From Roseateles sp. (lineage in GTDB: Bacteria > Pseudomonadota > Gammaproteobacteria > Burkholderiales > Burkholderiaceae_C), in the NCBI GenBank assembly GCA_015657635.1, contig JACDQM010000167.1:1-64000 (forward strand): a stretch of DNA of 64,000 nucleotides. Reading direction: 5' to 3'. The notes below the pieces were generated by a model that saw only the letters and a program-made list of their open reading frames with translations, did not search any database and had not been told where the DNA came from. This document shows positions 9,701 through 31,569 of this stretch, one piece after another. The first letter of the stretch is position 1; each line of letters opens with the position of its first letter. The translations under genes were made by a program, and so were the position numbers.

Positions 9701-9767
9701 CATTGGGGCCATGCTGACAGCGTTGCAGGCTGATCTCGAGGCAATCACTAAGGATGTCGAACCATGA
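6702..9767 (+). CDS. dpdH: DpdH, large P-loop ATPase of the Dpd system
   Basis: This is a 1021-residue ATPase. Walker A (GESGVGKS) is near residues 76-84 and a Walker B-like LVLLIEDFAAL near 311-321. The wide spacing, with an inserted helical region, is typical of large STAND/AAA-like defence ATPases. A proline-rich linker (residues ~585-605, rich in P, S and E) separates the ATPase half from a C-terminal helical half of ~400 residues. The gene follows dpdG and precedes dpdI with ATGA overlaps. Size, motif positions and neighbours fit DpdH. Its role in restriction is known only genetically for the family; what it senses or moves cannot be read from the sequence. Confidence 0.82.
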   Translation: MTSLSDFWPSSQNIADCIRTEAEVVDDAVLLAVHEPGPLITRTANGAVERRATEADLLASLMRDASDGSAVLVAITGESGVGKSHLVRWLHAQLQRHPRRAQLVIVLVPKTASLRQVVERILQPLQGEAYAKLLTELSQTVDHLRPGHAAAMLCTALSLVLEQKLTEGLASLNPEDRQLRERLALTRVLRDLIREPEVFDEWFHKHLERIVRQTIEGGSEQQTGEQRRFMPTDLDLPESYTPDGSRRAIQVALQHLTRSDGASRPLAAEILQEALDPALRDVFQFSRVLGQRTIEEIVDGIRQQLLKDGKELVLLIEDFAALAGIQQPLLNLMIAESDHGGVRVRAPIRTALAVTDGFLPSRQTILTRAKQEWLIPNTAASPQAIINRMVSLAGRYLNAARWGAKALREQFEVDSAGELEGWVKPFPTELSDDDHQRLSAFGTSPQGYPLFPLSAVAIESIARRELSPGGELRMNPRAFIDTVLRQTLQHRSLYEGKAFPPANFKGAAPNATVQIALKARGIPQEQLDRLASVLDYWAGNPGNLSDAPRAAKGVFEAFDLPWPFDAKLDIATEPAIVVKNAEQRPSAPSPLPEPPSPPRPSAPTPELEYLNVWSKGSIDQKFARRVRNLLAEALKDRIDWSIYRLKSRAIDAAHLWLPFASVGNPSNEPKLIVAAEARPLDPVLLAGLAALERWGENKKSWDYSHSEADYAIAQQLLDRIEAQAIAWHTAAAEQQAGVALKVLQRQALILRLSRAAEPRTPPLSDYFSGLPQQPWNPDAADNQPAAMVARAISRAEAARATVAGIVTKSVGCFQGDGDIVMAIDLRRAKSAWRQPLPEAGTMLIGTLLGDSKTAAEELFVTSRVETLLKRYSSATDIVLPRIRERLSDWDGAAPVAALMEQLQLAHKAGLFAYIPSGNFEQAKRAVEKLSSDEARQMIRQALAFKEPDPQSSIENRLLAWAALNMQQLVAVNDALTMLDRVLPDLDRVADAQLRNLGGGDIGAMLTALQADLEAITKDVEP

Positions 9768-10489
9768 GCACTCTCGTGCAACGTTGCCAGACTCTGGAAT
9801 TCAAACTCAAGGCCCTGGCGCAGGCGAACAGTCTTGCCAATGACTTGAAGTTCATCCAGCAGCGTGCCGGGGAGTGGCAGGCCCGGTATTCCAAATTGGT
9901 GGGTTTGCGTGCCCAGACTGCCCCTTTGACTCTCTCAAGCCAGGATGCGGCAACGGTAGCCTCGAAGATCGGTGCGCTTCGCCAGAATGGCCAAAAGGTG
10001 CTGACTCGCCTGCTTGCGAACGAGAACATCAAGGAACTGACTCGCGATTCGGCTTGGACGCGCCTGCTGAATTCCTGCGAAGGTCTCGCCGAGGAACTCG
10101 AGGTAGCCGGGCGCAAGGCCTGGAGAGCCCACTTGGAGCAACTTGGCACTCTAGAGGATCCGGCTACCCTGCGTGTGCGAACTCCCCCAACACCAAGCAA
10201 CGACGAGGCTCTGCGGGCTTACCAGGTTAGCTATGCCGCCTTTGCAGCGATTGCGCGCCTTGGGCTACCCCGATCGTCTGACGACCTCGCGCAAGTCTCG
10301 TCCCAAGTGGCGTCTTGTCGCCAGGCTTTCGCGCGTCTCACTTTCGATTTGCCGGTTGAGGTCAAGGCGTTCTATGACGCCATCTATGCTGGTACCGCCA
10401 CTCTGGCTCACGTTACTCCGACCGTTGCAAAGTGGCTGGGCGAACAGGGGCACTTGGAGCGGTTCCGCGTCCGGAGTGCCGATCAATGA
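9764..10489 (+). CDS. dpdI: DpdI, small helical protein of the Dpd system
   Basis: This 241-residue protein looks almost wholly alpha-helical, with heptad-like spacing of Leu and Ala through the first ~130 residues, which suggests a coiled coil. There is no enzyme motif, signal peptide or membrane segment. It sits between the DpdH ATPase and the DpdJ helicase with ATGA overlaps on both sides, the position that DpdI takes in other Dpd clusters. It may be a structural partner of DpdH or DpdJ. The name is supported by gene order and size rather than by a diagnostic motif. Confidence 0.72.
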   Translation: MSTLVQRCQTLEFKLKALAQANSLANDLKFIQQRAGEWQARYSKLVGLRAQTAPLTLSSQDAATVASKIGALRQNGQKVLTRLLANENIKELTRDSAWTRLLNSCEGLAEELEVAGRKAWRAHLEQLGTLEDPATLRVRTPPTPSNDEALRAYQVSYAAFAAIARLGLPRSSDDLAQVSSQVASCRQAFARLTFDLPVEVKAFYDAIYAGTATLAHVTPTVAKWLGEQGHLERFRVRSADQ

Positions 10490-18067: not shown

Positions 18068-18120
18068 TTGACGCGCCCTGAAACTGCCAGGCAGTTTGGT
18101 AGACGCTAATTGTGGAGGAG
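18068..18120 (+). promoter_or_regulatory. Candidate operator palindrome and ribosome-binding site upstream of the 18125 gene
   Basis: A perfect interrupted palindrome, AAACTGCC-A-GGCAGTTT, occupies 18081-18097, 27 nt before the start codon of the next gene. A TTGACG that could serve as a -35 box is at 18068-18073, but no good -10 box is seen at the matching distance. A strong Shine-Dalgarno stretch (GGAGGAG) at about 18114-18120 fixes the start of the gene. The palindrome is placed where a repressor would block transcription. Confidence 0.45.
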
Positions 18121-18124
18121 CAGG

Positions 18125-18769
18125 ATGCTCGAACAGGCTATGCGCGACCGTGTTGCCGCTTTCGACCTGGCGCAAGAGTTGATATTGGACGCTCTTGGTG
18201 ACGGCGTGTTGGACTTGGTACAGAAAATTAGCCAATCTCCACTAAAGCAGGGGATGCCACCCTTCGTGTTGGAACTCGACGGCGACCCCTTGTTCGTTGC
18301 GCAAGAGAGCGGAACGCTATTGCGGTTGCCGCCGGACTTCCAACTAACTGGTGAAATGCTCGGTGATTCGCCAGTAGCTATCTATTCGTTGCCGTTCGAA
18401 CAACTCGGGGTAGTTCGATTCATCTCAATCGCGGCGGACGTTGAACTCCCCGAGCCGTATTCGGGTGGCGCAGCGGTCACTGGCATTGCCCCAGGCTTCT
18501 TGGCTACGCTAGACCGTCTACTCGGTGCAATGCACTCGTCGGCGCTCAAACTTGCCTGCACAAAAATGGCAAGGAGTCTTGTTCGGGCCGAGTCTGCAAT
18601 GCAAGAGACCGCTTTGGACTCAGGGAAGAGTCCTGCAGAGTTATTGACTAACCAAGAGACGATGGAAGCGTTTGTTGACATGCTCGGTCGCGCTTACGTC
18701 CAGGCGTCTGAGCGGTCAAGTGAGATATTGCTGGATGCGTTTCGCGAGCAGGGACAGGAGCGGTTCTGA
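18125..18769 (+). CDS. Unrecognised 214-residue protein between the two Dpd arms
   Basis: I do not recognise this protein. It has no signal peptide, no membrane segment and no catalytic motif. The middle third reads beta-rich (LELDGDPLFVAQ, SLPFEQLGVVRFISI) and the last ~90 residues are helical. The ATG at 18125 is preferred over an upstream in-frame TTG because it follows GGAGGAG. It lies 184 nt after the dpdD stop, so it may have its own promoter, and a perfect palindrome precedes it. It is not part of the usual dpdA-K set. It could be an accessory factor of the island or an independent cargo gene. Confidence 0.6.
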   Translation: MLEQAMRDRVAAFDLAQELILDALGDGVLDLVQKISQSPLKQGMPPFVLELDGDPLFVAQESGTLLRLPPDFQLTGEMLGDSPVAIYSLPFEQLGVVRFISIAADVELPEPYSGGAAVTGIAPGFLATLDRLLGAMHSSALKLACTKMARSLVRAESAMQETALDSGKSPAELLTNQETMEAFVDMLGRAYVQASERSSEILLDAFREQGQERF

Positions 18770-19212: not shown

Positions 19213-19905
19213 TCAGACGGCGTATCTTTGATAGCCGTTCTTTCGCAGTTCGCACGCCGGGCACACGCCGCAGCCAAACCCCCATTGGTGCCTGGTTGTC
19301 CGATCGCCTTGGTAGCAAGTGTGAGTTTCTTGCTGCACCAGACTCACCAGACAAGTACCACCTAGGTCTTCTGCGAGTCGCCACGTCTGAGTCTTGTCTA
19401 GCCACATCAATGGTGTTTCGATGACTAGTCGGGCATCGAGTCCCAAACTCAAGGTCACCTGCAAGGCCTTAAGGGTGTCGTCTCGACAATCCGGGTAGCC
19501 CGAGTAATCGGTTTCGCACATCCCCCCCACCAACACCTGCAACCCTCGCCGGTAGGCCACCGCAGCGGCGTAGGTGAAGAACAGTAGGTTGCGCCCTGGC
19601 ACGAAGGTGTTGGGCAGACCGTTTTTCTCGAAGGCGATGGCGCGCTCGTCGGTCAGGGCTGTGGCGCTGATTTGGCCGAGTTGCTTCAGGTCGAGCAGAT
19701 GGTCGTCGCCCAGTTTGGGCGCCCACTGGGGGAAGTCGGCACGCAGGCGCTTCAAGATGACTTGCCGGCACTCCAACTCCACCGCGTGGCGCTGGCCGTA
19801 GTCGAAGCCGATGGTTTCGACATGCTCGTACCGGTCAAGGGCCCAGGCCAAGCAGGTGGTGGAGTCTTGACCGCCGGAAAAAAGCACTAGCGCGCGTTTG
19901 TGCAT
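19213..19905 (-). CDS. queC: QueC, 7-cyano-7-deazaguanine (preQ0) synthase
   Basis: QueC turns 7-carboxy-7-deazaguanine into preQ0 with ATP and ammonia. The N-terminal PP-loop ATPase motif is SGGQDSTT, starting near residue 9. The zinc site is complete: a cysteine in THTCY followed by CGVCPAC near the C-terminus. At 230 residues it matches the usual length. I chose the ATG at 19905, which follows AGGGAG and gives the conserved start ([12 protein letters not shown]). An upstream ATG at 19935 overlaps the end of the preceding DGQHR gene and would add 10 unconserved residues. It is last in the minus-strand modification operon. Host queuosine biosynthesis would normally have its own QueC, so this copy probably raises preQ0 supply for DNA modification. 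Confidence 0.93.
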
Positions 19906-19927
19906 GGGGGCTCCCTGCGGGGTAGGC

Positions 19928-21007
19928 TTACTCATTGGCTGCGCGGCGTGCCTTGCGCAGCGCCTTCTTGACGGCAGCAACCAGGTAACGGGTGAGTGCG
20001 TCGATGTCGCTTGGCGTATTCTGGATGCCGTTCCAGGGGCGCACGTCGGACTCGGTGAATTGCCACTGGCCGCTGGTCCAGGCTGTGTAGGGCTTGAGGG
20101 CCTCGAGACCCGGCTTGAACTGCGAGCGGTGACTGGCGCCCTCGGCGTAGTAGAGGTGGTCCATGACGAAACCCATGGCCACCAAACCGGCGCCGTGCAC
20201 CAAGCGCGACTGGCGCGGCGTCATGCCCTCCCACTCTGGGCCGAACACGTCCTCCACCGCTGCGAAGAACTCGCTGACGAGTTGGTAGGCTTGGTCTTCG
20301 CGGTTTTCGTACTGGATGAAGTCTCGCAACGCGCCGTCGGACGCTGAGTTCATGACCAACTTCTGCATGGCCACGTCACTGAGTACACCCAGGGTGTTGG
20401 TGTGCTGACGGATCTGCCGGTGTAGCGAAGAGTTGGCAGAAAAGTTGAGGCGGTCCACGATGCGGGCAGAGAATTTGCGCTTGGTGAAGCGCTCGGGCAA
20501 CCCCTCAACCTCTGGCAGCAACTCGTAGATTAGGGTTTTGGGAAGTGGGCGCGTGTTGTTAATGAGTACGAACTGCTGGCGCAGCTCGTTGTAGTCCTTG
20601 CATACCAGGGCAGAGACGAACACTTGGAAACTGCTCTTCTCTAGGCCCGAAAGGGCCGTAAGGCGCTGCTGGCCGTCTACGACAAATCCTGGCTTTTGGC
20701 CATTGGTTGCGTCGACCTCGATGTCGAGGACGCCTTCCGATTCGCTTGCGATACGCACGCCATCGATGAAAGCAACGATGACGGCGTTGGGCAGCACGGC
20801 GTCTTCGCGCGCGAGGTAGTCGCGGATGTCTTTGATGTGCGAACCGATCTGGTGGCGCTGGAAGCCGTTCAACTTACCGTCGTCTTGACGCGAGACGCGC
20901 TCGATCTCGGAGAAGGCCAGCACGTCGTGCGGATTGGCGGCGAAGACGAAGACGTCATGCCCGGGCGCTTGGTGCGCGCGAATGGCTTTGAAGCGGTAGG
21001 TGGTCAT
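19928..21007 (-). CDS. dpdB: DpdB-like DGQHR-domain protein, copy 1
   Basis: This 359-residue ParB/Srx-like protein has the family signature DGQQRLTAL at residues 111-119. It also has an upstream [10 protein letters not shown] block and a [14 protein letters not shown] block. DGQHR proteins include DpdB of the Dpd system and DndB of phosphorothioation clusters. DpdB is needed with DpdA to place preQ0 in Salmonella DNA. The ATG overlaps the dpdA stop by 4 nt. A second protein with the same blocks lies on the other side of dpdA, so which one is the orthologue of DpdB cannot be decided by reading. Confidence 0.82.
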
Positions 21008-22335
21008 GGGGTGTCGCGAAGTGTGCGCTGCACGTGGCGGTGGTAGACGCCGAGGTTGTGGAAGCCGCGGCGGCGGTTGTGGTTGTTTGATCGAAAGACC
21101 ATGACCTCGATGCCTATATCGCGGCAGATGTCGCAGTTGCAGCGCTTCCAGGGGGCGGCTTCAAGGGTTTCCCGGAGCGCCTTGTCGATCTCTGCGAGTT
21201 TCTTGTCGCACCTGGCGCCGTCGCTGTAGAGCGGTGCTTCAATCTCGTTGTGATACGCCATGACTGCAGTCCTGGCCGCTTCGGCGCTCGCCTCGCCTGC
21301 GTCAAAAGCTCGCAGCGCCTTAAGGGCTTGGGATTCAAACTTGGCCAATGATTCGGGCTTGTAAATGCCGTCTTTGACGCCGCGCATCAGACGCGCACTG
21401 CCCAGGGTCTGGGGCACGCGGATAGCGGTGAAATACTCCAAGCGCCCTTCGGGCTTCTCAAGGTAGTAGTTGGCCTTGGCGTCTTTGAAAGCGCGGATGA
21501 GCGGTGAAGTGGAGTCGAAGCTGGTGATGCCGAAACCGGTGAACTCGTCGATGGATTCGGCCTTGGCAAAGCCTAAGAGGTGGATGTGGGTTTCGGGCTT
21601 GATCTTGGCTCGGATGGCGTGCAGAACCGCTTTGATTGCCGGCACCTTGAGCGGCACCAATCCCCCAATAGCGAGGTACCGATAGCCCATGCCCTCCAGT
21701 GTTTGAGCCGCCTGGGCCATGCTGGCTGGCGACCAGCCTTGAACCGGGCCCATGGGCTCGAACGGATGATCGTTGTCGCGAACGATCTGCAAGAAGCGAC
21801 GGGCATTGTCGAGCGTGATCTCGTACCGGTCTTTCACGCGTGCCACGTAATGCGCCACTTCCTCTGGCGGCAGGCCCTCAGGAGCCCGGGGTACCTTGGG
21901 ATTGCTGAGGTCGCACTCGAAGATGATGTGGTCGGGCGAGACGCCGTGCGTGAAGCCCGCCTCGTCGTAGAAGTCGAAGACCTCTTGCGGCGTGAATGCA
22001 GGGCGTGGCAACCCGACGTAGGCGAAGGCCCCGCAGTCGCCCATTAGCATGAGGTCTTTAAAGCGTGGGCCGCCGAATCGCAAGTACCGGCGGGCTCCGT
22101 CGCGCAAGAATCGCTGTTCTTGCGCCGTTGTGTAACGTACCTTGGACTTGGCCACACCCTCGGCTTGGCGCACGGCACTCATGGCAACGAGCAACCCGTC
22201 GTACGGTGGCTCGGACATCAACTCGTGCGCATAGGCGTCGGTATGGTCCTTCTCGCGGCCGGCAGAGAATTTCTCGCCAACGAAGTCGAAGTCGGGGTCG
22301 ACGAAGTCTTGGGTATCGGAATAAAGGAACTTCAT
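21004..22335 (-). CDS. dpdA: DpdA, TGT-like DNA transglycosylase that inserts preQ0
   Basis: DpdA is the DNA relative of tRNA-guanine transglycosylase and swaps guanine for preQ0 in DNA. In the 443 residues I see the TGT-like aspartate at D100 (MGDCGAFAYVG). AIGGLVPLK at 222-230 corresponds to the base-binding glycine loop, and a second aspartate is D274 (GITSFDSTSP). The zinc site is C399, C401, C404 (CNCDIC) with H426 or H419. All elements needed for activity therefore appear intact. It sits between two DGQHR genes with ATGA overlaps. The size and divergence from TGT fit DpdA rather than a housekeeping Tgt of about 380 residues with a typical queuosine neighbourhood. Confidence 0.92.
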   Translation of the reverse strand: MKFLYSDTQDFVDPDFDFVGEKFSAGREKDHTDAYAHELMSEPPYDGLLVAMSAVRQAEGVAKSKVRYTTAQEQRFLRDGARRYLRFGGPRFKDLMLMGDCGAFAYVGLPRPAFTPQEVFDFYDEAGFTHGVSPDHIIFECDLSNPKVPRAPEGLPPEEVAHYVARVKDRYEITLDNARRFLQIVRDNDHPFEPMGPVQGWSPASMAQAAQTLEGMGYRYLAIGGLVPLKVPAIKAVLHAIRAKIKPETHIHLLGFAKAESIDEFTGFGITSFDSTSPLIRAFKDAKANYYLEKPEGRLEYFTAIRVPQTLGSARLMRGVKDGIYKPESLAKFESQALKALRAFDAGEASAEAARTAVMAYHNEIEAPLYSDGARCDKKLAEIDKALRETLEAAPWKRCNCDICRDIGIEVMVFRSNNHNRRRGFHNLGVYHRHVQRTLRDTP

Positions 22336-23462
22336 TGGCGATTACCTGCGGTGTAGGCGCGCACCAACGCGTCTTGCAGGCGTTTGATGTCTCGGGGGGT
22401 GCTTTGAATTTCATTCCAGGCGACGCCGATCGAGTCCCAAGTGCCCTTGGTCCAGCGGCAGTGCGGGGCTACGCGCTCAATCTCCTTCTGGACGGTCTTG
22501 AGGTCTTCGTCGCCCAAGGAAAACTTGGCAAAGATGCGGTCCATGAGCACGCCCATGGCCTCGATGCCGGCCGAGTGCATGAGGCGACTGTGGCGCGAGT
22601 CTTTGCCCCATGCCTCGGGGAAGACGGCTTTCACGGCCGTCCAGAAGGTGCACAGCACACGATACATAGCCTCCAGGTTGGCCGGGTCCCGGTGTGTGGC
22701 CTTGTAGGGTGCCAAGGCCCCCAAGGGGTTGTTCATGCTGTTGCGGATCATGCTGATCACAGCGGTGTCGGTAATGACGCCTTTGGCGACACCCCTGTCC
22801 GACGGGCGCTTGATCAGTTTGTGGAACGGCGAGTTGGGGTCGCGGTTGAGCAGGCCGCAGAGTTCGGACGGCACGCGACGCGCAGACAGTTCTCGCGGCA
22901 AGGTGATTCCACTGGTTTCGGGCAGCAGTTCGTTGATCAGGCGAGTGGGCAGGGGCTTGGCCTTGTTGACCAAGATGAACTGCTCGCGCTGGATCTCAAG
23001 GCTGTCGGAAACGAAGCCGACCACGGGTACGGGGATGTCGCGGTTCTGGGCCTGGGCCAACGCCAAGGAGCGCTGTTGGCCGTCGACGATCCAGGCCACG
23101 CACTCGCCCTGGGGCCGCACGGGCATAGTTAGGGTGCCGGCGGTGGCGATGCCTTCATCACCCTTGGGGCTGGGGCCGCGGGAGGCAGTGAACTTTACCT
23201 CGGGCGACATGGCCAAGATGATGGCGTTGGGGAACAGTACCGCGCCTTGGTTCAAGTATTCCACGATGCCGCGAACGTGGTTGCGGATCTCAGGACGCTG
23301 GAAGCCCTTGAGTTCGTCGGCCCCGTCACGTTCGATGCGACTGATGTCGGCCACCCGCACGATGTCTGCCCCTCTGATGAAAAAGGCAAACACGTCGAGG
23401 CCAGCGCCTTGCACCGTGCGCAGGGCTCGAACCACGATAGGCTCAGGCTTGCTAGCTTTCAT
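22332..23462 (-). CDS. DpdB-like DGQHR-domain protein, copy 2
   Basis: This 376-residue protein is clearly related to the DGQHR protein downstream of dpdA. It shares a GFQRPEIRNH block near residue 54, DGQQRSLAL at 127-135, FILVNKAKPLPTRL and a C-terminal WNEIQSTPRDIKRL. It differs by an insertion of ~15 residues before the DGQQR motif. The ATG at 23462 overlaps the stop of the upstream gene (ATGA), which settles the start; the frame is open further upstream. It overlaps dpdA by 4 nt. Well-studied clusters carry one DpdB, so the pair may form a heteromer or split the work. Either copy could be the true DpdB. Confidence 0.8.
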   Translation of the reverse strand: MKASKPEPIVVRALRTVQGAGLDVFAFFIRGADIVRVADISRIERDGADELKGFQRPEIRNHVRGIVEYLNQGAVLFPNAIILAMSPEVKFTASRGPSPKGDEGIATAGTLTMPVRPQGECVAWIVDGQQRSLALAQAQNRDIPVPVVGFVSDSLEIQREQFILVNKAKPLPTRLINELLPETSGITLPRELSARRVPSELCGLLNRDPNSPFHKLIKRPSDRGVAKGVITDTAVISMIRNSMNNPLGALAPYKATHRDPANLEAMYRVLCTFWTAVKAVFPEAWGKDSRHSRLMHSAGIEAMGVLMDRIFAKFSLGDEDLKTVQKEIERVAPHCRWTKGTWDSIGVAWNEIQSTPRDIKRLQDALVRAYTAGNRQ

Positions 23463-24391
23463 GAACGGCCTCTCGATGGATCGAAGTCCTGACGGACGGT
23501 TTGCCACAACCGGCGGAAACGACCTTGCTCGCAAGCTATGCCAAGGTCTCGGCGTAGATGAGCCAACAGCCGCGTCGACTGGCCAAACTGTGCTTCCCAG
23601 CTCTCACGCAGTTGACAGATCAACTCATCGTCCGTGAGCGAACGGCGTTTGGCGCTGTAGTGAGCCGTGACAGATGCGAGTGAGTGCTCCACCGCCAAGC
23701 GTGCTGTGTCTGCGGAAACAGTGCTGGGCAATCGCAGGTCCAAGAAGTGGCGAAGTGCGCGCTGCGGGAAGTCGGACTGCGTGCCGGCCGGCCCGACGAC
23801 TTCTAGTCGGGCGTCGTAGGGTAAAGCGCGTGAAGTCAGTCGGGCGGGCAGCAGCGCTCGACCGGGCGCCGAGGTGAACACCCAAGTTCGCTCAGCCATA
23901 GGCGACGCGGCCAAGGCCGCCAACTCGTCGGCGATCAGTGCCAAATAGGTGGACGGGATGGCAAGGTAGATGGCTCGGGTGTGGGTAGAGTTCCAGTGGG
24001 ACTGCAAAGGCCGACTGAACGCCTGCGTGAGTGCCTCCCACCAAGCCGACGGCGCGACACCCAGCCTTTGGAGGTGCGGGCCGATGGCAGACAATCCGCC
24101 GTGAAGCGTGAGGTTGTAGGAGGGGATGGGCGCGTTCGCTGGCACGGCGCCCAATCCGGCGGACACGAACACCAAGCGGGCCTGCAGTTCTTGTGCCGCA
24201 GCAACGGCCTCCTTCACCGAGCGGCCTTGGTACAGGGCGTGTGCTGGGCGAATGGCTGGGACTTGCTCCACTTGTGCCACCCATGACTTCACGGCCCCAC
24301 TCAGGGACGACCAATCGCCCTCAGGTAAGTTGGGCACCTCATCGGCCTTCGCCTTGCGAGCAGTGCAATTGGTGATGACAAGGGCAGACAT
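23459..24391 (-). CDS. dpdC: DpdC candidate, YaaA/DUF6884-like fold
   Basis: This is the first gene of the modification operon, 310 residues. The first ~100 residues follow the order of the YaaA/DUF328 and DUF6884 group: TNCTARKA at residues 7-14, HALYQGRS at 51-58 and SAGLGAVPANAPIPSYNLTL at 77-96. The C-terminal ~150 residues are helical and unrecognised. In Salmonella DpdC turns DNA preQ0 into the amido form (ADG). Position next to dpdA/dpdB and the motif set make this the best DpdC candidate, but I cannot confirm orthology or assign catalytic residues. If it is not DpdC, the island would make only preQ0 DNA. It overlaps the next gene by ATGA. Confidence 0.6.
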   Translation of the reverse strand: MSALVITNCTARKAKADEVPNLPEGDWSSLSGAVKSWVAQVEQVPAIRPAHALYQGRSVKEAVAAAQELQARLVFVSAGLGAVPANAPIPSYNLTLHGGLSAIGPHLQRLGVAPSAWWEALTQAFSRPLQSHWNSTHTRAIYLAIPSTYLALIADELAALAASPMAERTWVFTSAPGRALLPARLTSRALPYDARLEVVGPAGTQSDFPQRALRHFLDLRLPSTVSADTARLAVEHSLASVTAHYSAKRRSLTDDELICQLRESWEAQFGQSTRLLAHLRRDLGIACEQGRFRRLWQTVRQDFDPSRGRS

Positions 24392-24482: not shown

Positions 24483-25589
24483 ATGAAGCCTCATTGCCTC
24501 ACGACCGCCGCCGCCCCCTTTGAAGCAGCCCGGCAGGTCTCGTCTCTGCCGATGGGTCACCGTAGTCGCAACCTTCACGGCCACAGTTTCCTCGCCACAG
24601 TGCGCGCCACAGACAGTGCGAACTGGCAGGATTTCGAGGGCAGTGCGGCTTGGACTTTGAATGAGCAACTAAAGGCCATCGTGAGTGAGTTGGACTACAG
24701 GGACCTCAATGCCCTGATGCTGCAACCCACCGACGAGAACTTGGCCCGCTGGATTCGCGACAAGTTCGCTGAGCGGCACCCCCTGGTCAGCCTGCAGCAG
24801 GTGGGCGTGAAGAGCACCTTGGGCACAGGTGTTGACCTTGACGCTCAGGGGCAAGCGCACGTGTGGCGGCGGTACCGGTTTCAGGCAGCACACCAACTGC
24901 CGAACGTGCCGATGGGGCACAAATGCGGTCGGATGCACGGGCACTCGTTCGAGGTGATCGTTCACGCCAACCAAGAGTTGGGCGGAAGGGATCTGAGCAT
25001 CGACTACGACCACCTGGACGAGATTTGGGCGCCGTTCCACATGCAGTTGAACTACGAGTGCCTGAACACGATCCCTGGCTTGGAGAACCCCACCAGCGAA
25101 GTCATCTCTGCCTGGTTGTGGCGTCGACTTAGAGGGGTGTTGCCTGCGCTGAGTTCGGTCACCGTCTATGAAACAGGCTCTTGCGGTGCCAACTTCAACG
25201 GAACGGATTACCGCATCTGGAAAGAGATGACCCTGGACAGCGCGGTGCAGTTAAAGCGCGCCCCTGAAGGCCATCCCTTGCGCGCGTTGCATGGCCACAC
25301 CTTCGACCTGCGCCTGCACTTGAAGGCACCGATAGACGAGGTCATGGGGTGGACGATCGACTTTGGCGACGTGAAGACTTTGTTCGATCCGGTCTTCAAA
25401 GCACTGGATCACCAACCGCTGCACCAGCGCGAGGACCTTTTGGACTGCGACACAGAGTCGCTAGCCCGCTGGGCCTTCGCCCAGGCGCAAGCAGTCCTTC
25501 CCTCTATCGAGCGCGTGGACATCTTCGAGGTTCAGGGCGCAGGCACGTTGCTATTCGTTGACGAAGCACCGGACTTGATTCCGGTATGA
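24483..25589 (+). CDS. queD: Triple-domain QueD-type 6-carboxytetrahydropterin synthase homologue
   Basis: QueD makes 6-carboxytetrahydropterin from dihydroneopterin triphosphate on the way to preQ0. The usual enzyme is about 120 residues; this one is 368 and holds three tandem QueD-type units. The middle unit (from about residue 129) has the full set: a zinc His in FQAAHQLP, the catalytic Cys in GHKCGRMHGHS, and both HGH histidines. Unit 1 has FEAARQVS and GHRSRNLHGHS, so the first His is Arg and the Cys is Ser. Unit 3 has AVQLKRAPEGHPLRALHGHT, again without the first His and the Cys. Only the middle unit should be catalytic; the outer two may keep the fold for assembly. The gene is divergent from the dpd modification operon. 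It may form a pseudo-oligomer replacing the normal QueD multimer. Confidence 0.85.
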   Translation: MKPHCLTTAAAPFEAARQVSSLPMGHRSRNLHGHSFLATVRATDSANWQDFEGSAAWTLNEQLKAIVSELDYRDLNALMLQPTDENLARWIRDKFAERHPLVSLQQVGVKSTLGTGVDLDAQGQAHVWRRYRFQAAHQLPNVPMGHKCGRMHGHSFEVIVHANQELGGRDLSIDYDHLDEIWAPFHMQLNYECLNTIPGLENPTSEVISAWLWRRLRGVLPALSSVTVYETGSCGANFNGTDYRIWKEMTLDSAVQLKRAPEGHPLRALHGHTFDLRLHLKAPIDEVMGWTIDFGDVKTLFDPVFKALDHQPLHQREDLLDCDTESLARWAFAQAQAVLPSIERVDIFEVQGAGTLLFVDEAPDLIPV

Positions 25590-25898: not shown

Positions 25899-26381
25899 GC
25901 AAGGCAAGTGTGTTGAGTGAATCTTGGCAGGGGCGGCGTCCAGTTTGCGACTGCAGCTTTGCTACCTGGCTTGCTGCGCGACTTTGAGCCGCAGTGCCTG
26001 GCGCAATTTGCGCCCTGCAGCAGTCTGGCTAACGGGGAACTCGTTCACGCCATTGCCGTGACCCACGCAGAGCTGGGCGTGATTCACCCGTTCCGAGAAG
26101 GCAATGGGACCCTATCGCGCTTGCTGGCCGACGTGATGGCGGTTCAGGCTGGACGTGAGTTGCTGGACTACAGCAACTGGGAGCCACGCAGACCGGCCTA
26201 CATTGGGGCGATTCATGCCGGGTGTTCGGGGGGAACTGTCGCCCAATGGCTGGCCTCGTCGTTGAGGCGATGGTTGCGGGCGATGCTGGCAAGGATGGCT
26301 AGGAGCGCTCTGATGAGTTCAGCGGGCCAATTTGATGTAGGCGAAACGCTGGGCAGGTGCTTGCCTCAAGCTTTGCTCTAG
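25899..26381 (+). pseudogene. Fic-family protein remnant, N-terminus lost
   Basis: The frame from the GTG at 25917 encodes 154 residues with the Fic-family block VNLGRGGVQFATA and the AMP-transfer motif IHPFREGNGTLSRLL. The canonical motif is HPFxxGNGRxxR: the first Arg is Thr here and the second Arg is kept. Just before the GTG the same frame reads ARQVC followed by TGA, where intact family members have a WAGQ-R-S-type segment, so a stop has entered the gene. The N-terminal half is missing or scrambled. I therefore read it as a decayed Fic gene in the cargo end of the island. A short functional product from the GTG is less likely. Confidence 0.6.
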
Positions 26382-26910: not shown

Positions 26911-28269
26911 TTACCCACCCACACCGTCCTGTGAGCCCAAGATGCGCGTGCCCGTCGGTTTTGAATTAGCTGTAGCCGAAGTCAACTCGCGGTGAAGTAA
27001 GTCGAGCGCCTCTCGCTTCTCCTGCATGTAGTCGTGACCGTCGTAGTGCCGGGCTTGGATGCCAGTGAGTCCATGCGATTGCACATGCCCGCGAATCTCT
27101 CGACTGATGCGGTTGGCAGCCAACAGCGTTTCCACGCCGGAACGAACGCGTTTGAGCTGAAAACCTTCAATCGCATCACCGACAACCTGCGCTGCCCAGC
27201 CTGACAAGGTTGTGCCCGAGATTGGCTTGACACCCTTCGTCGTGGAGAAGACATGGTCGCCGACGCGCTCGAATGCCTGGAGGTCGCGCAGGGCCGCCTT
27301 AATGATTGGCACTGTGTGTGCCCGCGGGCCTCGCCCCGGGCGACCCTTGGTGTCATGGATGGTGATTGAGTCCGCGCGTACGTCCACCCAGTGCAGTCGC
27401 ACGAGTTGCTCGATGCGCTGCCCACCGGTGAGCAAGTGCATGCGCAGGCAACGACCGCTCAAGCCCGGCAGCTTCTCGATCAGCTTCCAATAGGCTCGGA
27501 GCTCATCTGCGCTCAGTGGTCGCTTGTCTGCACCGTCGAAGCGTCCATCGCGGCGCGTTTGAGCTGCCGGGTTGGCCTGTACGGCATAGGCCTTGAATGC
27601 GACCGGAATCGACGCTGTCACGCGTACATCAACGGCGCACTGAAACGCAGCCCGAAGGTAGGCTCGTAGCTTGTTCGACGTGCGACCTTTGCCCTGCTCA
27701 GTCAGCCGTCGCAGCATGTCGATCACTTGGTCCTGGGTGATTTCGCTTGCCGGGGTCTGGGCCAACTTCGGCCAGGCTTTCACGACATGCAGATCGAAGA
27801 GGTTTTTCGCCTCGCGGGCGCTGACTCGCCCCTGGGTGGCCTGGTGCTTGACGTAATCATCAAGCAGCTTGCCCAGCGAATGCGTGGCTCGGGTCGCCTC
27901 AGCCTCCTTGTCAGCCACATACTGCCGGCGCTCAATGGCCTTGGCTTCCTTGAGGCCACCGACCCCGTGGAGCTTTGTATGCTTTAGCGATAGCTGGCGG
28001 CACCGTTCGCGGGCGGCTGCGATGCTCAAGCCACGCGAAGTCGGCTCCAGCTTCTTGGGTGGCGACACGGGGTCGTAGGGGCCGAGTGGCTCTCGGTGCG
28101 TGCGCCCCTCGTTCGCGTAACGCCAGTAAAGCTGGACTGCGCCCGTACTCAATCTACGCGCCTGCAAGGACCCGCCTTGCTCCAACTTCTCGATCGTGAT
28201 GAAGGCTCCGGCGGGCAGCGCCAGAAGCTGTTTTGGCAGCGCCAAAGTCGCTGGTGCCAGTCCGCTCAT
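26911..28269 (-). CDS. Tyrosine-type site-specific integrase of the island
   Basis: This 452-residue P4/phage-type tyrosine recombinase has an N-terminal arm-binding region, a SAM-like core-binding domain (about 140-240) and a C-terminal catalytic domain. The first catalytic Arg is in TGGQRIEQL near 284. The second Arg-bearing helix is KRVRSGVETLL, followed by GHVQSHGL with the His, and the nucleophile Tyr is in ARHYDGHDY near 410. The canonical HxxR spacing is loose, as in many island integrases. It ends the dpd-bearing segment and starts 147 nt from a 45-bp tRNA 3' fragment, the usual place of an integrase beside its attachment site. It appears intact. Confidence 0.88.
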   Translation of the reverse strand: MSGLAPATLALPKQLLALPAGAFITIEKLEQGGSLQARRLSTGAVQLYWRYANEGRTHREPLGPYDPVSPPKKLEPTSRGLSIAAARERCRQLSLKHTKLHGVGGLKEAKAIERRQYVADKEAEATRATHSLGKLLDDYVKHQATQGRVSAREAKNLFDLHVVKAWPKLAQTPASEITQDQVIDMLRRLTEQGKGRTSNKLRAYLRAAFQCAVDVRVTASIPVAFKAYAVQANPAAQTRRDGRFDGADKRPLSADELRAYWKLIEKLPGLSGRCLRMHLLTGGQRIEQLVRLHWVDVRADSITIHDTKGRPGRGPRAHTVPIIKAALRDLQAFERVGDHVFSTTKGVKPISGTTLSGWAAQVVGDAIEGFQLKRVRSGVETLLAANRISREIRGHVQSHGLTGIQARHYDGHDYMQEKREALDLLHRELTSATANSKPTGTRILGSQDGVGG

Positions 28270-29364: not shown

Positions 29365-31485
29365 TTAGGCGCCGTCGCTCGCAAGTTCGTAGGCCTTACG
29401 AATGAGAGCGAATGCCTCTTGCAGTTTCGCCTCAGAATTGACGCTGAAGATCGAACCTTCAGTGCCTTGTGTTGCCGAGTTTGCGATCCAGGCCCACGAC
29501 GAAGATGCTAGTACTCCTGGGGCAATCGCTGCCAGTTCAGCAGGATCAGAAGCAAGTCGCACATCGATCCAGTTTGCACGGGGCAAGAATTCGACAAACC
29601 AAGATGGCATGCGGTAGACCAAAGTTCTTAGGCTTGGTACTTCCGTCACATCATCGCCAAGCGCGACGGTGAACTCAGCCAGTTGGTCTAGCCAAGGGCG
29701 CAAACCTTCTGGGCAGAGCACGTCGCCACGGGTCTTGCCGCCAGCCGCAATCAATGCGTCTTCAAGCTCTGCTTCCTTGATGGCCGAGATGTCCGCCGCC
29801 AGTGGCTTCCATATCTTGAGGGCAGCTTCGGACAATGCCTTGCCGCGGCTTTCAATTTCTGGTGCCCCCCAAGTTGTCAGCTTGGCCAGGCTGCGGTTGA
29901 GCCAAACCGGACTGTTTGCGTACCCACCGGGATCGCGGTCGCGCTTCTGAAGAAATGGTTTGGCCTGGAACTCGCTGTTGAACGCCGTCAACGTCAAGTT
30001 GCCGAGTCGATGCAGCCAGACTCGCTGGACCTCGGCCCAATCCGGCCCGAGCATTTGTTGCCACTCTTCAGACAGATCAGCTTTCTGAGGCAAGACATGC
30101 TCGATGGTTAGACCCGTCAGCGATACCTTTTCCTTGCCTGCATTGGTCAGTCGAGACAGCATGTAGAACGCGGTGCGACGGTGGTACATGTCGTTCGTCG
30201 TCAGTGCAGCCATGAAGGCGTCGTCGTTCGGAAACTCCTTGCCGCGCCCCATCATTGCTAGACGAGCTTTCAGGCTCGCCAGCGGAGTTTCGGTGCGGAT
30301 CTTGGTTGCTAGGTTCGCAAAGATGGTTCCTCCGCTGCGAGTTTCGGCGCCCAGCGCTGACCGCCGGAAGACGTAGCTTTCGAGAATGTCGATTGCTTCG
30401 CAAAATTCAGTCTGCTGCAGGGTCCCGTCATGGTGCAGCCGCTCGTACAAAACCATCACCACTGTTGCCGCCACATCTACTAACTGGCGCAACCGCGCGA
30501 GCCGCTCCTCGATGGCTGGAGTTTCGTCGGGGCCAATTGTGAAGCGGCAGAAGTAGCGGCCGAAGCGCGCCATTCGCTGCAGGCGATCAATGGCTTGTGC
30601 GTGGTTCTCAGTGCGGTTGATGTAGGGCGGGTACCAGCGCTTGAACTCGGCGTAGACATTCTCCAGCTTGAACGGCTTGGCTGGCCGAAGCTCTAGGGTC
30701 AAGAAATCGCGAAGGAACCCGTCAAACAGTGCGCGGTAGTGGATGCCAAAGGCGGCCTCAAGGGGTTGCCAATACTTCAAGTACCAGTCGGTTTGAAGTT
30801 GCTCGGAGTGTCCCATCAGCACGTAGTTGCGCACCAAATCTGCTTGCGCCAGTTGCATGCCCGTTGAGTTCAGGCTTTCGAAGATGAGTTGCGGATTGTC
30901 TTGGCCCGGAGACAAGGAAACCGAAACGATCATCAGCCGCCTAACACCCTTGATGATCCTGGCGGCGTCTTCGCCCTCAAGCAGTTGCCGCAGGTAGGCT
31001 AGATTCCGCGGAACCTGACTCTGCTTGTCGTCGGGCATCGGCGCGTCGAGCAACAGATGCTGCAACCAGGCGTTGTCCAATCGACGTAGCTGCAACTTCG
31101 ATCTCAGTTCAGAGCGATCCACGTAGGGGTTCACCAGGTACTGATTTTGAAGGGCATCAGGTGAGTCTCCCTGTGCGACCACCGCTCCGGACTGCCTCAG
31201 GTGATCTCGTAGCGCCAGCACCAGCAGCAAGCATGTCGTCAAACGCTGCTGACCATCGATGACAAGTCGCTGTGACAGAACGGCGTCGCCCTGTTCACTG
31301 CCAACCCACACGACGGAACCAAGGAAGTGGATCGCTCCATCAGGCGCATCTGCGACAGTCAGAACGTCAGAAACCAAGCGTTCACATTCGGTCGCGGTCC
31401 AACTGTAGTCACGTTGAAAGATGGGGATTACAAACTGCAGTTGGCCGGCTAGCAGCGTGAGCAATTGAGTTTCTCTGGCTTGCAT
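29365..31485 (-). CDS. DUF262/DUF1524 (GmrSD-type) putative modification-dependent nuclease
   Basis: This 706-residue protein fuses a ParB-like DUF262 domain with a DUF1524 HNH-type nuclease domain. DUF262 shows IPIFQRDYSW near residues 20-30 and IDGQQRLTT near 75; in GmrSD enzymes this domain hydrolyses nucleotides. DUF1524 shows IEHVLPQ near 460 and LGNLTL near 494, the His and Asn of the nuclease motif. Some 200 further residues follow. GmrSD enzymes cut phage DNA carrying modified bases. The ATG at 31485 is preceded by GGGAG and gives a normal start; a longer frame upstream adds 28 poorly behaved residues. It would need to spare the island's own 7-deazaguanine DNA if both are active. Confidence 0.85.
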   Translation of the reverse strand: MQARETQLLTLLAGQLQFVIPIFQRDYSWTATECERLVSDVLTVADAPDGAIHFLGSVVWVGSEQGDAVLSQRLVIDGQQRLTTCLLLVLALRDHLRQSGAVVAQGDSPDALQNQYLVNPYVDRSELRSKLQLRRLDNAWLQHLLLDAPMPDDKQSQVPRNLAYLRQLLEGEDAARIIKGVRRLMIVSVSLSPGQDNPQLIFESLNSTGMQLAQADLVRNYVLMGHSEQLQTDWYLKYWQPLEAAFGIHYRALFDGFLRDFLTLELRPAKPFKLENVYAEFKRWYPPYINRTENHAQAIDRLQRMARFGRYFCRFTIGPDETPAIEERLARLRQLVDVAATVVMVLYERLHHDGTLQQTEFCEAIDILESYVFRRSALGAETRSGGTIFANLATKIRTETPLASLKARLAMMGRGKEFPNDDAFMAALTTNDMYHRRTAFYMLSRLTNAGKEKVSLTGLTIEHVLPQKADLSEEWQQMLGPDWAEVQRVWLHRLGNLTLTAFNSEFQAKPFLQKRDRDPGGYANSPVWLNRSLAKLTTWGAPEIESRGKALSEAALKIWKPLAADISAIKEAELEDALIAAGGKTRGDVLCPEGLRPWLDQLAEFTVALGDDVTEVPSLRTLVYRMPSWFVEFLPRANWIDVRLASDPAELAAIAPGVLASSSWAWIANSATQGTEGSIFSVNSEAKLQEAFALIRKAYELASDGA

Positions 31486-31569
31486 TTCTTGGTGTCTCCC
31501 TTGTCGAACATTGCCAGTATCTTCTAGGCACGTGTTCGTTAGCCACTCGGGTTGACAGTGCGATGGCAA

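What the first reader, a model, noticed from the sequence alone, without database searches (positions are those of the whole stretch)
24483..25589. QueD with three tandem units, only the middle one catalytic
Each unit has the HGH pair, but units 1 and 3 lack the first zinc His and the catalytic Cys (Arg/Ser in unit 1; non-His and non-Cys in unit 3). The middle unit has the complete set. This looks like built-in pseudoenzyme domains around one active centre, a different architecture from the usual homo-multimeric 120-residue QueD.
Basis: partly seen in the sequence, partly recalled or inferred. Interest (0 to 1): 0.72.

Follow-up and report, generated by a model that had tools for sequence, protein, structure and literature searches.

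The report
Three-in-one QueD sharing one active site
This gene makes a queuosine-pathway enzyme in which three copies of the usual small subunit are joined into one chain, and the parts of a single working site appear to be split between the middle and last copies; relatives with the same layout occur in many other bacteria.

Summary
The 368-aa ORF is real and has three QueD (PTPS, PF01242) units. Only unit 3 of this protein has that dyad (Asp309-His310). Best reading: a QueD trimer fused into one chain, with one composite active site split between units 2 and 3.

The layout recurs. In 106 aligned triples the unit-2 zinc/Cys/Glu set and the unit-3 dyad are kept in all 106; the unit-2 dyad survives in 12. 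In 37 held-out sequences the result is 37, 37 and 9. All 22 single-unit QueDs examined keep the dyad. The genome assembly (94% complete) has a second triple QueD beside queE and no single-unit QueD was found. The window copy lies in a Dpd DNA-modification island. AlphaFold2 predicts three T-fold modules (pLDDT 89.5). No coordinates were available, so the cross-unit contact is inferred, not measured. Bimodular QueF and monomeric dUTPase are precedents: a new variant of a known kind.

The parts
24483..25589 (+). Triple-unit QueD, 368 aa
   Evidence: ORF; three PF01242 stretches; TIGR03367 above cut-off; AF2 pLDDT 89.5, pTM 0.88
24492..24845 (+). Unit 1 (about aa 4-121): first zinc His, Cys and Glu replaced (Arg17, Ser28, Ser111); Asp71-Tyr72
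   Evidence: predicted alone it matches E. coli QueD
24852..25205 (+). Unit 2 (about aa 124-241): His137, His152, His154, Cys148, Glu230 present; Asn190-Tyr191 instead of Asp-His
   Evidence: aligned to E. coli QueD with Z 16.7
25206..25565 (+). Unit 3 (about aa 242-361): no first zinc His, no Cys; carries Asp309-His310 and Glu349
24924..24926 (+). Codon of catalytic Cys148 (unit 2)
   Evidence: sequence; Cys in 106 of 106 triples
25050..25055 (+). Codons of Asn190-Tyr191, the lost Asp-His dyad of unit 2
   Evidence: sequence; Asp-His kept in 12 of 106 triples
25407..25412 (+). Codons of Asp309-His310, the dyad proposed to complete the unit-2 site
   Evidence: sequence; Asp-His in 106 of 106 triples and 37 of 37 held-out
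23459..24391 (-). DpdC (neighbour)
   Evidence: PADLOC DpdC E 7.4e-79
22332..23534 (-). DpdB, first copy (neighbour)
   Evidence: NF041060 E 1e-139
21004..22335 (-). DpdA (neighbour)
   Evidence: NF041059 E 6.1e-151
19928..21007 (-). DpdB, second copy (neighbour)
   Evidence: NF041060 E 1.7e-117
19213..19980 (-). QueC (neighbour)
   Evidence: TIGR00364 205.6 bits, cut-off 150.3

Best explanation
The protein is a QueD trimer fused into one chain that has kept one of three original active sites. That site is composite: unit 2 gives the zinc ligands (His137, His152, His154), the thiol (Cys148) and Glu230, and unit 3 gives the Asp309-His310 dyad across the unit 2/unit 3 interface, as a neighbouring subunit does in homo-oligomeric PTPS (that intersubunit triad is recalled, not from a call). 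Unit 1 probably closes the ring and is structural. The product would be 6-carboxytetrahydropterin on the way to preQ0, here for the DNA-modifying Dpd island. Shown: three units, which residues each has, their conservation, a T-fold prediction. Inferred: ring arrangement, cross-unit contact, activity, product.
For: Window protein: only one full catalytic set exists and it is split between units 2 and 3. Across 106 triples, unit-2 His/Cys/His/His/Glu 106 of 106 and unit-3 Asp-His 106 of 106, while Asp-His is kept in 12 of 106 in unit 2 and 54 of 106 in unit 1; in 40 of 106, the window among them, unit 3's is the only one. Held-out sequences, none above 88% identity to the set: 37 of 37, 37 of 37, and unit-2 dyad 9 of 37, unit-1 dyad 1 of 37. 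Without the 79 rows found by peptide pattern: 27 of 27, 27 of 27, 8 of 27. Control: 22 of 22 single-unit QueDs keep D70-H71. Unit-2 state changes at least 9 times on the tree. AF2 shows three modules, and two-module uricase chains align over units 1-2 and 2-3 (Z about 11). Gene context: Dpd island; a queE match in 69 of 80 named relatives' loci.
Against: No coordinates, so the Cys148-His310 distance was not measured. The source for intersubunit catalysis is recalled; the papers are not held. Unit-2 Asp-His survives in 12 of 106 and 10 of 40, so there the site could be completed in cis. The window copy is a long branch. No activity data.
Confidence: 0.82

Rival explanations
1. One reading: the middle unit is an autonomous active centre and both outer units are inert scaffolds.
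For: Zinc His, Cys and Glu all lie in unit 2; 12 of 106 triples keep Asp-His in unit 2.
Against: The window's unit 2 has Asn-Tyr at the dyad; 94 of 106 triples lack Asp-His in unit 2 but 0 of 106 lack it in unit 3.
Confidence: 0.08
2. The window copy is a decaying, inactive paralogue, and the second triple QueD (contig C10) does the work for tRNA and DNA.
For: Long branch, at most 65% identity to any other aligned member; a second triple QueD exists in the genome.
Against: Every residue of the proposed composite site is intact in an unbroken frame. Three of 80 named relatives also lie in Dpd islands with the frame kept.
Confidence: 0.1
3. The protein catalyses another COG0720 reaction (PTPS-II or PTPS-III type) or serves only as a binding protein.
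For: COG0720 members are known to differ in function (PMC5041015, section read).
Against: Only the QueD signature CxxxHGH is present, in unit 2; no ExxHGH or CxxxxxHGH. QueD equivalog cut-off passed. Dpd/queC/queE context.
Confidence: 0.05

Closest known systems
QueD / PTPS-I (COG0720; E. coli 4NTK/4NTM, P. aeruginosa 2OBA)
   Same: Fold, zinc His triad, Cys, Glu, Asp-His, CxxxHGH signature, pathway context.
   Different: About 120-residue single-unit chains; here three units in one chain and the catalytic set split between units 2 and 3.
Bimodular QueF (V. cholerae, E. coli)
   Same: Two tandem T-fold domains with motif and Cys/Glu separated between domains and one interdomain site per chain (PMC5372742, passages). 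Same superfamily and pathway.
   Different: Two units, not three; a nitrile reductase of another family; homodimer without a central tunnel.
Monomeric dUTPase of herpesviruses
   Same: Duplicated and fused subunit of a trimeric enzyme, with one active site built from two domains (PMC12524310, passages).
   Different: Another fold, two domains, different chemistry.
Urate oxidase (two tandem T-fold modules)
   Same: Tandem T-fold chain that aligns across units 1-2 and 2-3 of the model (Z about 11, rmsd about 4.8).
   Different: Two modules and another reaction; a fold resemblance only.

Membership tests
QueD (PTPS-I) | PTPS domain / QueD equivalog score above cut-off | tested here: met
   PF01242 180.2 bits (cut-off 22.4); TIGR03367 148.5 (cut-off 89.25)
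QueD (PTPS-I) | Signature CxxxHGH (PMC5041015) | tested here: met
   Unit 2 only: C148-G-R-M-H-G-H; units 1 and 3 lack the Cys
QueD (PTPS-I) | Three zinc His (H16, H31, H33), Cys27 and Glu110 in one unit | tested here: met
   Unit 2: H137, H152, H154, C148, E230
QueD (PTPS-I) | Catalytic Asp70-His71 in the same unit as the Cys | tested here: not met
   Unit 2 has Asn190-Tyr191; the dyad is in unit 3. It lowers the claim that any single unit is a complete QueD, not the claim that the chain works like one
QueD (PTPS-I) | Homo-oligomer of single-domain subunits of about 120 aa | tested here: not met
   One 368-aa chain with three units; oligomeric state not testable here
QueD (PTPS-I) | Makes 6-carboxytetrahydropterin | not testable with these tools
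   needs an assay
PTPS-II / PTPS-III | CxxxxxHGH or ExxHGH motif (PMC5041015) | tested here: not met
   None of the three HGH motifs is preceded so
Dpd island | dpdA, dpdB, dpdC with dpdD-K | tested here: met
   DpdA, two DpdB, DpdC, D, E, F, G, H, J, K matched; the ORF in the DpdI place (9764-10489) matched no PADLOC model
Bimodular QueF | QueF motif E(S/L)K(S/A)hK(L/Y)(Y/F/W) | not tested
   considered only as a precedent for the architecture

The most novel reading that the evidence does not exclude
A widespread family, apparently undescribed, of single-chain asymmetric QueD trimers in which one composite site does the chemistry and the two dead sites were kept for another job. The HGH pair persists in the dead units (unit 1 106 of 106, unit 3 105 of 106), and in 64 of 106 unit 1 has Cys where the first zinc His stood. 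These remnants could hold a second metal or a regulator, or dock QueE or QueC for hand-over of the product.
Probability: 0.2. Interest if true: 0.65.

Novelty: new variant of a known kind. Interest (0 to 1): 0.5.

Why it matters
Evolution has here run the tethering experiment for an interface enzyme. By losing residues in two of three sites the family indicates which residues act in cis (zinc ligands, Cys, Glu) and which in trans (Asp-His, perhaps the Asp54 equivalent). That makes intersubunit catalysis in QueD/PTPS testable by single-site mutants in one chain, which a homo-oligomer does not allow. For annotation, it warns that a unit-by-unit check of catalytic residues would call all three units of this protein incomplete although the chain holds one full set.

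Tried and rejected
Middle unit fully catalytic on its own: rejected, the Asp-His dyad is absent. Outer segments not QueD-like: rejected for unit 1; unit 3 was not predicted alone but scores 64.8 bits with PF01242 and forms a module in the whole model. Frameshift or assembly artefact: rejected, the layout recurs in other assemblies. A phage- or plasmid-borne form: no triple found; the 35 viral loci match over 246-486 bases, about one unit, and 0 of 82 plasmid and 0 of 3 phage records cover 80% of the query in one place. One Dpd-specific clade of triple QueDs: not supported, the four Dpd copies need 4 changes on a quick tree with long branches. An internal TGA flagged in three relatives (L241-L243) proved to lie near the C-terminus, where the profile match runs past the stop. 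No tRNA found in the window as an integration site. Contact distances: not computable, no coordinates among the files. Literature: no description of a triple QueD seen in the listings, or in passages of PMC5041015, PMC6884629 and PMC11888242; two key papers are not held, so this does not prove absence. Searches for the PTPS intersubunit triad gave nothing usable.

Limits of the counts. A3 has 106 rows, 104 different. Seventy-nine of them come from the best 80 of 404 genome contigs relatives, found by peptide patterns, one of which covers the second and third zinc His of unit 2; without those rows the result is the same (27 of 27). Dropped rows: L067 (a stop inside the match), the G022 copy (inside a 1504-aa open frame), and L036 and L044 as repeats of L115 and L163. 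Of the 40 later loci, three repeat genomes of A3 (L210, L228, L235), leaving 37; two pairs among these are over 95% alike. The single-unit controls are 20 matches taken from the listed, truncated part (ten near its top, its last ten) plus L007 and L008, so they lean to well-scoring QueDs; the other single-unit matches were not used, and those printed include many without the QueD Cys.

Full report
What is there. The ORF at 24483-25589 (+) encodes 368 aa. Pfam PTPS matches it in three stretches (E 1.6e-53) and the NCBIfam QueD equivalog passes its cut-off (148.5 against 89.25 bits). Unit 2 is closest to solved QueDs: best hits are P. aeruginosa 2OBA and E. coli 4NTM/3QN0/4NTK over about residues 125-240. 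Identities to E. coli QueD are about 35% (unit 1), 45% (unit 2) and 35% (unit 3), and 22-29% among the units.

The correction to the finding. Aligned to E. coli QueD, unit 2 has zinc ligands His137, His152 and His154, Cys148 and Glu230, but Asn190-Tyr191 in place of Asp70-His71. Unit 3 has Asp309-His310 and Glu349 but no first zinc His and no Cys. Unit 1 has Asp71-Tyr72 and has lost the first His (Arg17), the Cys (Ser28) and the Glu (Ser111). The chain thus holds one full catalytic set, spread over units 2 and 3. The roles of these residues, and the intersubunit Cys/Asp/His triad of rat PTPS, are recalled from the literature; the papers looked for are not held.

It is a family. The own genome has a second triple QueD on contig C10 beside queE; no single-unit QueD was found in this assembly, which is 93.8% complete. 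Of 60 relatives, ten have at least three PTPS matches, and in these ten I read a triple QueD (G001, G008, G014, G022, G029, G031, G035, G040, G050, G053). With triple profiles at E <= 1e-60 there are matches in 61 of 399 genomes of the order (G1043 in two partial pieces), 19 of 369 of the class and 14 of 299 of the phylum, the own genome counted each time; I read the proteins only where loci were given. The genome-contig scan found 404 encoding relatives and kept 80, with names such as Roseateles, Paucibacter, Pelomonas, Ideonella, Rubrivivax, Sphaerotilus and Rhizobacter. Of these 80 loci 69 hold a queE match, usually directly downstream, 3 lie with dpd genes (L048, L078, L116), and 8 have neither. 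The viral, plasmid and phage collections gave no triple.

Conservation. In 106 aligned triples (A3) the unit-2 set is kept in 106 of 106 and the unit-3 Asp-His in 106 of 106. Unit 2 has Asp-His in 12 of 106 (Asn-Tyr in 70) and unit 1 in 54 of 106; in 40 of 106, including the window, unit 3's is the only one. The first zinc His is absent from units 1 and 3 in 106 of 106; Cys is present in 2 of 106 in unit 1 and 0 of 106 in unit 3. The unit-2 state changes at least 9 times on the tree. Of 40 later loci, 37 are new genomes, none above 88% identity to A3: unit-2 set 37 of 37, unit-3 dyad 37 of 37, unit-2 dyad 9, unit-1 dyad 1. Of 22 single-unit QueDs, 22 keep D70, H71, C27, E110 and the zinc His. 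The equivalent of E. coli Asp54 is 106 of 106 in unit 3 and 97 of 106 in unit 2, so it too may act from unit 3.

Reading the pattern. If unit 2's zinc site is the live one, a dyad in cis cannot be required (94 of 106 lack it), nor one from unit 1 (52 of 106 lack it); only unit 3's is never lost. The dyads that would serve the two dead sites are the ones that drift. That is what a ring with donation from unit i+1 to unit i would give after fusion and loss of two sites (inference). On a tree of 45 units and 23 single QueDs each unit class is one side of a branch (SH-aLRT 99-100, only 119 columns, long branches flagged), which fits one old triplication.

Structure. AlphaFold2 on A3: pLDDT 89.5, pTM 0.88, three ordered modules, 4-120, 125-238 and 242-358. 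Unit 2 aligns to E. coli QueD entries (Foldseek TM 0.92 by target; Z 16.7 at rmsd 1.3). Two-module uricase chains align over residues 123-361 and 4-241 (Z about 11, rmsd about 4.8). Unit 1 alone (22 rows, pLDDT 85.3) finds E. coli QueD first (E 1.9e-8, TM 0.66). No coordinates were among the files, so the contact between units 2 and 3 was not measured.

Context. Around it lie DpdE, F, G, H, J, K, D, QueC, DpdB, DpdA, DpdB and DpdC and an integrase at 26911-28269. A survey reports QueD in 78% of dpd islands and frequent extra dpdB copies (PMC11888242, passages), so the setting is ordinary. In the own genome QueC was found twice (island, C38), FolE twice (C38, C158), and QueE once (C10, searched with its own QueE): the island duplicates QueC and QueD but seems to borrow QueE and FolE (inference).

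Comparison and verdict. Bimodular QueF is the nearest precedent: two weakly homologous T-fold domains share one interdomain site (PMC5372742, passages). Monomeric dUTPase is one in another fold (PMC12524310, passages). The COG0720 review does not contain the word 'tandem' and its case-study section describes no fused form. I call this a new variant of a known kind, with a composite active site that is well supported by conservation but not yet by geometry or assay.

Noticed in passing
24483-25589, HGH motifs of units 1 and 3: The HGH pair is kept in the dead units (unit 1 106 of 106, unit 3 105 of 106) although the third zinc ligand and the Cys are gone; in 64 of 106 unit 1 has Cys at the first ligand. 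Structural role or a remnant metal site: unexplained.
   Followed up: partly
19928-21007 and 22332-23534 (-): Two DpdB paralogues flank DpdA; the same order is seen in L048 and L078. Extra dpdB copies are reported as common (PMC11888242).
   Followed up: partly
25917-26381 (+): Short Fic-like ORF between the QueD gene and the integrase; matches PADLOC PDC-S04 only from profile position 86 on, so perhaps an N-terminally truncated remnant.
   Followed up: no
29365-31569 (-): GmrSD-type restriction protein with both N and C domains (PADLOC Orf5/HEC-06/SspE-like) just beyond the integrase.
   Followed up: no
18110-18769 (+): 219-aa ORF between DpdD and QueC with no NCBIfam or PADLOC match.
   Followed up: no
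L015, L017, L020-L028, L030, L031: Single-unit COG0720 proteins of the same family of bacteria with a run ending in ...S(R/K/L)R(I/V)HGH and no Cys at the QueD position, yet with LDH kept: a different paralogue group of unclear function.
   Followed up: no
L084, L085, L094, L104, L111, L113, L117: Triple QueDs with neither queE nor dpd genes found in the locus, grouping with the Dpd-associated L078 on the tree; neighbours of L085 and L113 were listed but not identified.
   Followed up: partly
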